Made by a program: the position numbers and the translations under genes
In this document: piece after piece, positions 46,813 to 51,297 of the stretch
Layout of the letters: each line of letters starts with the position of its first letter
Position numbering within the stretch: the first letter of the stretch is position 1
Notes under the pieces: generated by a model
Database searches by the model: none
The model's input: the letters and a program-made list of their open reading frames with translations, nothing else
Told to the model about the DNA's origin: nothing
Source: Achromobacter pulmonis
Lineage (GTDB): Bacteria > Pseudomonadota > Gammaproteobacteria > Burkholderiales > Burkholderiaceae_B
Length of the DNA: 64,000 nt
Assembly: GCF_902859765.1 (NCBI RefSeq)
Contig: NZ_CADIJV010000011.1
Location: 81,261-145,260, forward strand
Direction of reading: 5' to 3'

Positions 46813-48204
46813 ATGGCACGACAACTCAGAATTAAGAAACCGGCCTGGGTGACCTGGCTGAGAGGCCGCTTGCTGGCCGACAATTTGCCCACAACGCTCT
46901 GCGTGGCCGCCCTGATGGGGCTGGCTGGCGCGCTGGCGACCGTGATTTTTCGGGAACTGCTGGGATGGAGCCAGATGCTGCTGGGCGGCGCCGATTCGCC
47001 CCATGGCATGGTGTCCCTGGCGCGCGGGCTGGCGCCCTGGGAGCGATTCCTGCTGCCGGGTGTCGGCGGAGCGATCGCCGGACTGCTCCTGCAGTTGGCC
47101 GCCAAGCGACTGCCGCCGCGCGGCGCTGCCGACTATATGGAAGCCATTGCCATCGGGCGCGGCGTGATCGGTTTCCGGCAGACGGTGGCGCGCAGCATTT
47201 CTTCTTTGTTTTCAATTAGTTCGGGCGCTTCGATCGGCCGCGAAGGGCCGATGGTGCAACTGGCGGCGATGTTCTCGTCGCTGTCCGGCCGTTACCTGGT
47301 GCTGCCGCCGCGGCATTTGCGATTGTTGGTGGCCTGCGGCGCAACCGCGGGGATCACCGCGGCCTACAACGCGCCGATCGCCGGCGCATTGTTCATCTCC
47401 GAGATTGTCTATGGCGCGATTTCCTCGGCCACATTGGTGCCCCTGGTGGTGTCGTCGGTGGTGGCCAATATCGTGACGCGCCAGATCCTGCACTACGACG
47501 CGGTCTTTCATATGCCGCCGTTCGATTTCGTTTCCGGCTGGGAAGTCGCCAATTACCTGGGACTGGGCCTGATCGCGGGCATGGTGGCGCCGCAATTCCT
47601 GCGGTTTCTCGACGCATGCAAGGCGTTGTTCCGCCGCTTTTCGCTGCCGTTGTGGACCAAGATGGCGATTGGCGGCCTCGTGGTTGGCGCCCTGTCGGTG
47701 TTCAAGCCCGAGGTCTGGGGCAATGGCTACAGCGTGGTCAACAGCATGCTGCATACGGAATGGGCCTGGCAGGCGGTGGCCGCGATTCTGCTGTTCAAGA
47801 TCCTGGCCACCGGCGCCAGCGTGGGGTCGGGGGCAATCGGCGGGGTGTTCACGCCCACCTTGTTTGTGGGCGCGGCGGTCGGGGCCTTGTATGGTGCCGG
47901 CCTGCATGCGCTGTTCCCGGCCGCGGACCTGTCGGCGGTGTCGAGCTACGCGGTCGTGGGCATGGGGGCGCTGCTGGCGGCCACGACCCATGCGCCGTTG
48001 ATGTCGATCCTGATGATCTTCGAGATGACGTTGAGCTACGAGGTGATGTTGCCGTTGATGCTGGCGTGCATAACGGGGTTCGTGATTGCGCAGCGCATTC
48101 GGCCGGATTCGGTGTATGCGAAATCACTGGCCAGCAATCGCATCGCGCGCGAGACGCTGAAGGCCGCGCCGGTGTTGCCATCGGATAGGCCTCGCGATGC
48201 CTGA
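46813..48204 (+). CDS. ClC-family chloride channel or chloride/proton antiporter (ClcB-like)
   Basis: 463 residues, membrane protein with the ClC fold. The selectivity motifs are SISSGASIGREGPMVQ (with the gating Glu of GREGP), AAYNAPIAGALFISEIV (with a second acidic residue at the E. coli proton-Glu position) and GGVFTPTLFVGAAVG. It moves chloride across the inner membrane, probably in exchange for protons. Start ATG 46813 has a weak binding site. Confidence 0.88.
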   Translation: MARQLRIKKPAWVTWLRGRLLADNLPTTLCVAALMGLAGALATVIFRELLGWSQMLLGGADSPHGMVSLARGLAPWERFLLPGVGGAIAGLLLQLAAKRLPPRGAADYMEAIAIGRGVIGFRQTVARSISSLFSISSGASIGREGPMVQLAAMFSSLSGRYLVLPPRHLRLLVACGATAGITAAYNAPIAGALFISEIVYGAISSATLVPLVVSSVVANIVTRQILHYDAVFHMPPFDFVSGWEVANYLGLGLIAGMVAPQFLRFLDACKALFRRFSLPLWTKMAIGGLVVGALSVFKPEVWGNGYSVVNSMLHTEWAWQAVAAILLFKILATGASVGSGAIGGVFTPTLFVGAAVGALYGAGLHALFPAADLSAVSSYAVVGMGALLAATTHAPLMSILMIFEMTLSYEVMLPLMLACITGFVIAQRIRPDSVYAKSLASNRIARETLKAAPVLPSDRPRDA

Positions 48205-48253
48205 TAGACAGAATTCGCGAGAAAAGGCGTGAGCAGAATAGTGAGTGGAAGCT

Positions 48254-48268
48254 TGCATAAATTATGCA
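48254..48268. promoter_or_regulatory. Inverted repeat upstream of the transglutaminase-like gene
   Basis: A perfect 7-1-7 palindrome TGCATAA-A-TTATGCA about 235 bases before the gene start. It could be a regulator site. No protein can be assigned. Confidence 0.35.
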
Positions 48269-48438
48269 GAAGAAGTCTTCCTGCCGGCGCAAGAGAAATA
48301 GTAGGTACCGCGCGTGGACACAGGTTTGTGTCATATGAATAAAAGCCAATCTCATTTAAAAAAATGATATTCTTTTCCTCGTGAGGCCTGGGTTCAATCA
48401 ACCTACGGAGCAAAAGAACTGTCACAGTGCATTTCAAA

Positions 48439-48468
48439 TTAACAACATGAAAATCAGATGCGTATGCT
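48439..48468 (+). promoter_or_regulatory. Candidate promoter of the transglutaminase-like gene
   Basis: TTAACA (48439-48444, five of six to the -35 consensus) and TATGCT (48463-48468) separated by 18 bases, about 36 bases before the ATG at 48504. Confidence 0.45.
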
Positions 48469-48503
48469 ATCTGTAGTTAGATTTGCACGTGTTAATTACG
48501 GAG

Positions 48504-49860
48504 ATGCAGGGTTTGTTGAGGAAAATAAAGTCCAAGGTATTGCTGCCCTTGGTGATTGTTATGGCGGCGGGGGGCTACGCTTATAAGGCGGCTCCCATTG
48601 ATGGCAAGACGGGGCTGGAGGCGGCACAGGCCTATTCTTCTACAGAGGATTACCTGCGTCGTTTCGATCCTAACCGCTACATGCGCGCTGGCACGGATTT
48701 CTTCAATCCCAGATACAGCCCGGCTCGCCTCAACAAACCGCTGGACCAAATCGACATAACGTACGATTATCCTTTTGAGTACCTTGAGAAGGTCGAGGCC
48801 AAGCTCAGTAATATCGATCGTCGCATCGCCCTGCAAGGAATCTTTCGAAAGATAACGTCTGAGTCCAAGAACAACCTCGAACGTCATTTGGCTGTCCTGG
48901 ATTTTCTGTACAAGGCTGCATATCACAATGCTTATGTCCAGCCGATGTATGAAGATAAGCAAGCGGTGTACGATCCTATCGTACTCCTCAAACTGGGCGA
49001 AATGCGTTGTGGTGGTGTGGCCCGTGTCGCCGCTGATCTGTTCGAAGCCGCCGGCTATAAAACCCGTCTGGTGCAGGCACAGGCGCACATCACCACGGAG
49101 ATCTTCTATGATGGAGGGTGGCACCTTTTCGAGGCGGATTTAGTTGGTGGCCCGCCTGTCCTGATCAACGGGCACATCCCTTCTGTAGCCGAACTTGCCG
49201 ATAATCCGTTTCTTATAGACAGATCACCATCGCACTTTGCGGGATTGGTTTCGCCCGGGTCGGGAATGGGTGGAGACGAGTCGCCCGTCTATCCATCCTA
49301 TTACTTCTTCTCCAAGCAAGCGCTGGAGGGTCTGGATGCAGCTTACTACTACAAAACTGCTACACCCGAAGAAGCTGCGCAATCCAAGTGGTATGGGTGG
49401 AACTACTACAAGACCACCACTAATCGATGGAAGCTCAGCGATTTTGGACCAAAGTACGAACCCGCTCCACCCAACTTCAAGAACGTGAGCGTGAAGGGAG
49501 GGAAGTTCGTCGTCGAGTGGCTCCCTGCGCTCGATTCGGACAATGATCTGCTGGGTTATCGCATATTTGTGGCGACCAAAAGCAGGGGCTGGAATTACCA
49601 GGACATCAATGCCTCCGCCAGCGTCAAGAAGTACTTTGTGGGCGGCTGGAAGCCAGAAATGTATGACCATCTTTTTAAGACGCCCCCCCCGCAACATTGC
49701 ATTCTTCGAAACGAAATCTACTCGTGTAGAACTGCCTGTGCCGGAGACTGGGGAGCCCATATACGTGACGGTCATGCCGTTTGACCAACATGGTGAAACA
49801 GTCGGCAGACGCCTTTACAACATGTCCGCTGAGTTGAAGTTATCTGTCCCCTCGAGCTGA
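48504..49860 (+). pseudogene. Secreted or membrane-anchored transglutaminase-like protein, out of frame at a C8 tract (phase-variable or broken)
   Basis: The present reading frame is open to 49784; a continuation in another frame runs to 49860. The start is uncertain (TTG 48483, GTG 48489, ATG 48504 or TTG 48513). An N-terminal signal anchor (VLLPLVIVMAAGGYAY) is followed by a papain-like transglutaminase core: Cys in GEMRCGGVARVAADL, His in QAHITTEIFYDGG and an Asp in EADL. A beta-sandwich resembling fibronectin type III follows (PPNFKNVSVKGGKFVVEWLP). A run of eight C at 49683-49690 breaks it: with seven C the frame continues through FETKSTRVELPVPETG to SVPSS. The gene is visibly richer in A+T than its neighbours, suggesting horizontal origin. 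Confidence 0.7.
49683..49690 (+). repeat. Poly-C tract (C8), possible phase-variation switch
   Basis: Eight consecutive C. One C less joins the two frames of the transglutaminase-like gene. Poly-C slippage controls virulence genes in Bordetella. Confidence 0.6.
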
Positions 49861-49944
49861 TGGTGCGCTCCCGATGACCTGACCATTGGCACAGAGCGCG
49901 AATGCGTCCTGCCATTCTGTAAAAGGGCCGATCAGCGCATTGGC

Positions 49945-51297
49945 CTATTTCCCGATGCAAAAACTGGAAAAGATCTCCCCCAGCAAATCGTCGCTGGTGA
50001 ATTTTCCGGTGATGCTCGACAGGCTGTCATGCGCCAGCCGCAATTCCTCGGCGAACAGGTCGAGCACGCGGTCGTCCTGCTCGGCGTGTCCGGCCGCCAG
50101 CGCCAAGTGTTCGGCGGCATCCTGCAGCGCATGCAGGTGGCGCTCGCGCGCCAGCCAGGGCGATTCGGCGCCCGGGTTCCAGCCGGCGATCCGCAGCAGT
50201 TCGGCGCGCAGCGCGTCCAGGCCGGCGCCGCGCTTGGCGGAGATGCCGAGTTCGCCGGGGCCGGCGGCAAAGGCTGTGGACAACAGGTCCACCTTGTTGA
50301 AGACCTTCAATACCGGCGTACGCGGCGGCAGCCGCGCGGTGATCTGCGCGTCCAGCTCGTGGCCCGGCTGGGTGGCGTCCTGCAGGTGCAAGATGACGTC
50401 GGCGCGTTCGATCTCCTGCCAGCTGCGGGCAATGCCGATGCTCTCGACGGTGTCTTCGGTTTCGCGCAGACCGGCGGTGTCGACGATATGCAGCGGCACG
50501 CCATCGATATGGATCTGCTGCACCACTTTGTCGCGCGTGGTGCCGGCAATCGGCGTGACGATGGCAACGTCGTCGCCCGCCAGGGCGTTCAGCAGGCTCG
50601 ACTTGCCGACGTTGGGCTGCCCGGCCAGCACCACGTGCAGGCCTTCGCGCAGGATTACGCCCTGGCGGGCCTGGGCGATGAGATGATCCAGGTCCCCGGC
50701 CAGCTTTTCCAGCGTGGGGCGCGCCTGGTACTTCTCGAGGAAGTCGATTTCCTCTTCGGGGAAATCGAGCGTGGCCTCGACCAGCATGCGCAAATGGACG
50801 ATGCGGTCGGACAGATCGTTGACGCGATTGGAGAAGTCGCCCGATAGCGACGCCATGGCGCCGCGCGCGGCGGCCACCGAGGACGCTTCGATCAGGTCGG
50901 CGACGGCCTCGGCTTGCGCCAGATCCATGCGGTCATTGAGAAATGCGCGGCGGGTGAATTCACCCGGTTCGGCCAGGCGCAGGCCGAGGTCGCGGCCCGC
51001 CGCCAAGCAGCTGTCGAGCACGCGGCGCAGCACCGCGGGACCGCCGTGGCCCTGCAGTTCTAGCACGTCTTCGCCGGTGTAGGAATGCGGTCCCTTGAAG
51101 TACAGCGCGAGGCCCTCGTCGAGCCGTTCGCCATCGACCGCCTTGAACGGCAGGTAGTGCGCATGACGCGGCGTGAGTTCGCGCTGGAAGAGGCGACGCA
51201 CCAGTTCGGACAGGTCTGCACCAGAAATGCGCACGACGCCAATGCCCCCTCTTCCGGGGGCGGTGGCAATGGCGGCGATGGGGGCGTGGGCGGACAT
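49945..51297 (-). CDS. mnmE: tRNA modification GTPase MnmE (TrmE)
   Basis: 450 residues. Order: N-terminal tetrahydrofolate-binding domain (1-120), helical domain, G domain with [14 protein letters not shown] (G1), [10 protein letters not shown] (G3) and NKVDLL (G4), and the C-terminal FCIGK motif with its catalytic Cys. Forms a complex with MnmG for wobble-uridine modification. Transcribed on its own here, 14 kb away from mnmG. Confidence 0.98.

What the first reader, a model, noticed from the sequence alone, without database searches (positions are those of the whole stretch)
48483..49860. Possible phase-variable transglutaminase-like surface or secreted protein
The gene encodes a signal anchor, a Cys-His-Asp transglutaminase core and a fibronectin-like domain, but is split exactly at a C8 tract. 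With C7 the frame joins a sensible continuation of about 57 residues to 49860. It is poorer in GC than its neighbours. Poly-C slippage switches fim and bvgS genes in Bordetella, so an on/off switch is credible; a decaying pseudogene or a sequencing error are the alternatives.
Basis: partly seen in the sequence, partly recalled or inferred. Interest (0 to 1): 0.75.

Follow-up and report, generated by a model that had tools for sequence, protein, structure and literature searches.

The report
Recently frame-broken transglutaminase-like gene
A rare, probably horizontally acquired gene for a transglutaminase-like exported protein loses its reading frame at a run of eight Cs, but the related intact genes compared lack that run and two other genes in this genome break the same way, so it looks like an ordinary slippage event or an assembly error rather than an evolved on/off switch.

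Summary
A low-GC gene (start near 48504) changes reading frame at C8 (49683-49690). The downstream piece (49693-49857) is real coding sequence: it matches the C-termini of three intact relatives as well as the upstream piece matches the rest (75/69/48% against 77/69/49%).

The switch reading lacks support. None of those three relatives has a C run at that site. C8 is no commoner in the window than chance gives, and 40 C8 tracts is normal for the genus (12-61). An MFS transporter and the error-prone polymerase DnaE2 of the same assembly are also split at C8, while the orthologues compared lack an uninterrupted C8 there. By codon phase, 7 of 13 callable C8 tracts look split against 2 of 17 in three relatives; homology confirms only three of the seven.

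Best reading: a recent slippage indel in a drifted C run that replaces the last ~55 residues (end of a fibronectin-like part) and leaves the putative catalytic triad intact. Assembly error is the main rival. Phase variation is possible, without positive evidence; no second isolate was available.

The parts
48504..49682 (+). upstream coding piece: signal anchor, transglutaminase-like core, first half of a fibronectin-like part (start may be TTG 48513/48516)
   Evidence: 77% aa identity to the intact G040 copy (L005)
49008..49010 (+). codon of invariant Cys169 (putative catalytic)
   Evidence: role inferred from the Transglut_core match
49086..49088 (+). codon of invariant His195 (putative catalytic)
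   Evidence: role inferred
49137..49139 (+). codon of invariant Asp212 (putative catalytic)
   Evidence: role inferred
49464..49616 (+). weak fibronectin type III match (first part of the domain)
   Evidence: 14.3 bits, cut-off 25; PDB FN3 chains, best E 0.23, not significant
49683..49690 (+). C8 tract at which the reading frame changes
   Evidence: no C run at this site in L005, L002, L003
49691..49784 (+). unrelated tail (about 30 residues) read in the upstream frame after the tract, to its stop
49693..49860 (+). downstream coding piece in another frame, homologous to the C-terminus of intact relatives

Best explanation
A rarely distributed, probably horizontally acquired gene for an exported transglutaminase-like protein (signal anchor, Cys-His-Asp core, C-terminal fibronectin-like part) suffered a recent one-base slippage event at a run of Cs that arose by ordinary drift in this lineage. 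The product keeps the putative catalytic core but exchanges its last ~55 residues, which hold the best conserved stretch of the C-terminal part, for about 30 unrelated ones, so it is probably destabilised or altered. Shown: frame change at C8, homologous downstream piece, three intact relatives without the run, and equal protein divergence in both pieces. Inferred: that the change is in the living genome and not only in the assembly, that it impairs the protein, and that the intact protein acts as a peptidase or cross-linking enzyme in the periplasm or at the surface (from the superfamily only).
For: Both pieces show the same nonsynonymous divergence from G040 (pN 0.13 and 0.12; dN/dS 0.06 for the N piece, with synonymous sites near saturation), so any decay is recent. 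Three of three intact relatives lack the run. C8 tracts also split an MFS transporter and DnaE2; 35 other genus genomes have an uninterrupted close MFS orthologue, 39 of 43 have DnaE2 frames of over 1000 codons, and the 7 and 13 sites compared as DNA have no C8 there. 7 of 13 callable C8 tracts look split against 2 of 17 in G005, G003 and G001 together (Fisher p 0.02). No other stop or shift in either piece. The three homology-confirmed broken genes are of dispensable kinds (recalled). PMC3711429 (passages) reads singleton frameshifts near 3' ends as more likely indels than sequencing errors.
Against: An assembly error would give the same picture, and the excess of breaks at C8 in this one assembly could be its signature. 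mutS and mutL each lie in an uninterrupted frame, so a mutator lineage is not indicated. The lack of relaxed constraint in the C piece fits an error equally well. PMC3711429 also says that singletons validated by homologues are expected to be sequencing errors rather than indels. No second isolate was seen.
Confidence: 0.46

Rival explanations
1. Sequencing or assembly error at a homopolymer; the gene is intact in the living strain.
For: Excess of apparent breaks at C8 in this 91-contig draft (7 of 13 callable against 2 of 17). Two contig ends carry long artificial-looking poly-C (C22 near the start of C4; about 143 bases nearly all C at the end of C25), so the assembly has uncorrected artefacts. 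The C piece shows no relaxed constraint. PMC3711429 expects homologue-validated singletons to be errors (passage).
Against: Such poly-C ends look like untrimmed two-colour short-read artefact (recalled), a technology usually accurate at eight bases (recalled). The homology-confirmed broken genes are of dispensable kinds; no essential gene was found broken at C8, but this was not tested for all tracts. The number of C8 tracts is normal for the genus (40; range 12-61).
Confidence: 0.32
2. Contingency locus: reversible slippage at the tract switches the full-length surface or secreted protein on and off, as at bvgS of Bordetella.
For: Frame change exactly at a homopolymer in a probably exported protein. 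Short C tracts can switch: bvgS varies between C6 and C7 (PMC1891110, passages). Both frames are otherwise open.
Against: Tract absent from three of three intact relatives. It lies after ~395 of ~445 residues. C8 is no commoner in this window than chance. The same happens in an MFS transporter and a DNA polymerase. The threshold for significant C/G tracts in the Bordetella survey was apparently 9.
Confidence: 0.14
3. C-terminal sequence switching or recoding: slippage of DNA, RNA polymerase or ribosome at the tract yields two C-termini on the same catalytic core.
For: Tract near the 3' end with both frames open; C-terminal switching is proposed for poly-G tracts of 10 or more in Helicobacter canadensis (PMC2823697, passages).
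Against: Site not conserved in relatives; the alternative tail has no homologue support; the tract is shorter than in the precedent.
Confidence: 0.05

Closest known systems
bvgS C6/C7 tract of Bordetella pertussis (PMC1891110, passages seen)
   Same: C homopolymer inside a coding sequence; a one-base length change shifts the frame of an otherwise open gene
   Different: bvgS variation was shown between strains and within a culture; here there is one sequence only, no tract in the relatives compared, and the break lies at the far 3' end
C-terminal phase variation in Helicobacter canadensis (PMC2823697, passages seen)
   Same: homopolymer near the 3' end; the two frames give different C-termini
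   Different: those tracts are 10 or more G long and vary in the read data; here C8 and no read data
Transglutaminase-like superfamily, Pfam PF01841
   Same: Cys, His and Asp invariant in four sequences in the expected order; weak profile match over residues 115-210
   Different: below the curated cut-off; no NCBIfam model; no solved relative found by sequence
Singleton frameshifted genes / recent pseudogenes (PMC3711429, passages seen)
   Same: frame change confirmed by homologues, site not conserved, near the 3' end
   Different: located exactly at a homopolymer, so reversion is mechanically easy

Membership tests
Phase-variable homopolymer (contingency) locus | frame change located in a homopolymeric tract of an otherwise open gene | tested here: met
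Phase-variable homopolymer (contingency) locus | tract longer than expected by chance | tested here: not met
   2 C8 in the window, 4.1 expected; 40 in the genome, genus range 12-61 over 43 genomes
Phase-variable homopolymer (contingency) locus | tract retained in orthologues | tested here: not met
   absent from 3 of 3 intact relatives; only one of these is of the same genus
Phase-variable homopolymer (contingency) locus | tract length varies between isolates or colonies | not testable with these tools
   one genome per species held; no reads
Transglutaminase-like superfamily (PF01841) | profile score above curated cut-off | tested here: not met
   20.7 bits against 23; relatives 17.9, 16.4 and 15.0 bits
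Transglutaminase-like superfamily (PF01841) | conserved Cys-His-Asp triad in order | tested here: met
   C169, H195, D212 invariant in 4 of 4 sequences; which residues form the triad is my assignment
Transglutaminase-like superfamily (PF01841) | transglutaminase / papain-like fold | not testable with these tools
Fibronectin type III domain (PF00041) | profile score above curated cut-off | tested here: not met
   14.3 bits against 25; L003 18.1, L002 16.1, none listed for L005
Recent pseudogene / indel allele | intact orthologues without the shift | tested here: met
   L005, L002, L003 single open frames of 445, 469 and 475 aa
Recent pseudogene / indel allele | further disabling changes or relaxed constraint | tested here: not met
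   no second stop or shift; pN of the C piece equals that of the N piece, so decay, if any, is very recent

The most novel reading that the evidence does not exclude
A rare, horizontally spreading transglutaminase-fibronectin surface protein that in this species has come under stochastic control at C8, either on/off or by switching its C-terminal part while keeping the catalytic core, as one of several C8-switched genes in this genome that would also include the error-prone polymerase DnaE2.
Probability: 0.1. Interest if true: 0.55.

Novelty: new member of a known kind. Interest (0 to 1): 0.2.

Why it matters
If it were a switch, this species would have a set of contingency genes that includes a mutagenic polymerase, which could be tested at once. 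As the evidence stands it matters mainly as a caution: in this high-GC genome, apparent frame breaks at C8 occur in unrelated genes, so a frame break at a C tract is not by itself evidence of phase variation. The protein (transglutaminase-like core plus C-terminal fibronectin-like part, sparsely distributed) has no match among NCBIfam models and no solved relative found by phmmer.

Tried and rejected
Plasmid, phage or viral gene: no match in plasmids or phages; in viral contigs 50 stretches matched a pattern and none was a relative. PHROGs gave one match of no weight (E 0.026), PADLOC none.

Mismatch-repair defect as the cause of C8 breaks: mutS and mutL each lie in an uninterrupted frame; point mutations were not examined.

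Excess of C8 tracts as an assembly signature: not seen, 40 against 12-61 in 43 genomes.

Scripts that failed or were replaced: the first codon-phase script could not separate the strands and called almost nothing; searches replaced it. One search, an earlier version, gave 7 changes and 5 same-frame among 12 callable. The ORF comparison of contig C11 with G040 was dominated by shadow ORFs and missed the known break, so it was not used.

Weak points: the codon model was trained on this genome only. 26 of 40 tracts were unclear and 1 at an edge. Of the 7 split-like calls only 3 (this gene, MFS, DnaE2) are confirmed by homology on both sides. L127: an ABC-transporter ORF ends before the tract. L143: the tract lies at the very end of an alternate-type ATP synthase epsilon gene, just before the next gene, so a gene junction is likely. 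L124 lies ahead of the SelO domain and L121 has no Pfam match. The controls had 3 further phase changes without the split signature. G005, G003 and G001 were chosen because their sites were fully listed (17 each, all 51 used, 1 at an edge); the listed sites of other genomes (G002, G004 and some of G006) were not used.

Papers: searches returned listings of 4 of 4, 20 of 51 and 15 of 601 papers; no listed title reports phase variation by C tracts in Achromobacter. PMC9430717 (passages) concerns a different transglutaminase-like proteinase, linked to an RTX adhesin.

No tool named the organism; that the genus is Achromobacter is a guess from genome size and gene content.

Full report
Observation. 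The window holds C8 at 49683-49690. Upstream, a frame is open from 48504 through the tract to a stop ending at 49784; downstream, another frame continues to a stop ending at 49860. The tract alone is not remarkable: two C8 occur in the window where shuffles give 4.1.

The downstream piece is genuine. The same-genus genome G040 carries an intact 445-residue version in the same clc-mnmE interval (L005), and two metagenome-assembled genomes carry intact versions of 469 and 475 residues (L002, labelled Planctomycetota; L003, Burkholderiales). A third record found (L004, 32% over residues 98-241) is a distant relative only. The upstream piece is 77, 69 and 49% identical to L005, L002 and L003, the downstream piece 75, 69 and 48%. 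Nonsynonymous divergence is the same in both pieces (pN 0.13 and 0.12 against G040); dN/dS of the upstream piece is 0.06, a rough value because synonymous sites are near saturation. The gene was therefore maintained as one protein until recently, or still is.

What it encodes. The best Pfam match is Transglut_core (E 5.2e-4, 20.7 bits, cut-off 23) over residues 115-210, then fn3 (14.3 bits, cut-off 25). Cys169, His195 and Asp212 are invariant in four sequences and fit the triad; this assignment is mine. NCBIfam gives nothing at E up to 1 for 4 of 4 proteins, phmmer of L005 against the PDB nothing at E up to 1, and a profile mostly insignificant FN3-type chains (5 at E up to 5, best 0.23). The break falls after the putative catalytic core, inside the fibronectin-like C-terminal part; the segment put out of frame holds a strongly conserved stretch (YVxVMPFDxHGExVGRxLY). 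The signal anchor is read from the sequence and was not tested with a tool.

Distribution. Matches: 3 of 268 genomes of the family (own, G040, and a 28% identical partial match in G039), 1 of 399 in the order sample (own only), 2 of 369 in the class sample (own, plus a 36-residue match of no weight). Of the 30 mnmE loci fetched, out of 43 genus genomes searched, only the window's and G040's hold the gene. In 14 of these 30, clc lies within 1500 bases, with intervals of 113-1044 bases, so the site is variable. The gene is 52% GC in a mostly 62-68% GC surrounding. Against G040 its dS is 2.3, while the neighbouring mnmE has 0.34: the two copies probably did not diverge with their hosts and may have been acquired or replaced separately. 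In L002 the gene is poorer in GC (0.49) than its flanks (0.58).

Is it a switch? At the homologous site none of the three intact relatives has a C run. C8 counts per genome in the genus run from 12 to 61, with 40 here (43 genomes). A codon-phase survey of all 40 C8 tracts of this genome gave 7 split-like, 6 same-frame, 26 unclear and 1 at an edge. Three relatives (51 tracts) gave 17 callable: 2 split-like, 12 same-frame and 3 other phase changes. Random positions gave 205 split-like of 4661 callable, out of 6000. Fisher p for 7/13 against 2/17 is 0.02; per tract, 7/40 against 2/51, it is 0.04. Homology confirms three of the seven: this gene, an MFS transporter and the error-prone DNA polymerase DnaE2 (1261 bits to NF004225 for the upstream piece, 274 for the downstream piece). 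The other four are unconfirmed, and at least two look like gene ends or junctions.

For the MFS gene, 35 other genus genomes have a close orthologue in one frame of 386-470 codons, and 7 have only distant matches. For DnaE2, 39 of 43 have a frame of over 1000 codons; besides this genome, G028 (240 codons) and G027 (179) are short and G033 has no match, for reasons not examined. The orthologues compared as DNA (7 MFS, 13 DnaE2) lack an uninterrupted C8 at the site; one DnaE2 relative (L172) has a C7 a few bases away in an open frame. So runs of C seem to arise here by ordinary drift and then break the frame, in genes of unrelated function. That is the pattern of slippage indels, or of a systematic assembly error, rather than of a dedicated switch.

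Error or mutation? Two contig ends carry poly-C artefact, which shows uncorrected sequence but, from recall, suggests two-colour short-read data that read eight-base runs well. mutS and mutL are uninterrupted. I found no essential gene broken at C8 but did not test all tracts. I lean to a real indel (0.46) over an error (0.32); the first was lowered and the second raised by 0.02 on rechecking, because the cited frameshift survey also expects homologue-validated singletons to be errors.

Literature. bvgS of B. pertussis varies between C6 and C7; the threshold for significant C/G tracts there was apparently 9, with three shorter tracts added (PMC1891110, passages). C-terminal phase variation is proposed for Helicobacter canadensis at poly-G tracts of 10 or more (PMC2823697, passages). 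[quoted passage not shown] A frameshift survey reads singleton frame changes as errors or recent indels, and those near 3' ends more as indels (PMC3711429, passages).

Verdict. The finding is real as sequence and ordinary in its most likely meaning; it is undecided mainly between a recent slippage allele and an assembly error. A switch remains possible at about one in seven.

Noticed in passing
G000 contig C37 near 3521 (L144:2523-2530): Error-prone DNA polymerase DnaE2 is split at a C8 tract; 39 of 43 genus genomes have a frame of over 1000 codons, and 13 relatives compared as DNA have no C8 there.
   Followed up: partly
G000 contig C4 near 174009 (L088:14009-14016): An MFS transporter gene is split at a C8 tract; 35 other genus genomes have an uninterrupted close orthologue.
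   Followed up: partly
G000 contig C25 end and C4 start: Long artificial-looking poly-C at contig ends, probably untrimmed sequencing artefact.
   Followed up: no
window 48204-49945: The clc-mnmE interval varies in the genus: this gene, a gene that looks like a GNAT acetyltransferase (recalled label, not tested), both, or almost nothing.
   Followed up: partly
L006:1474-2328: G039 carries a shorter, distant transglutaminase-like relative (28% identity over the core), 284 residues long and so without room for the C-terminal part.
   Followed up: no
G028 and G027: Short DnaE2 frames (240 and 179 codons) in two other genus genomes; contig ends or breaks, not examined.
   Followed up: no
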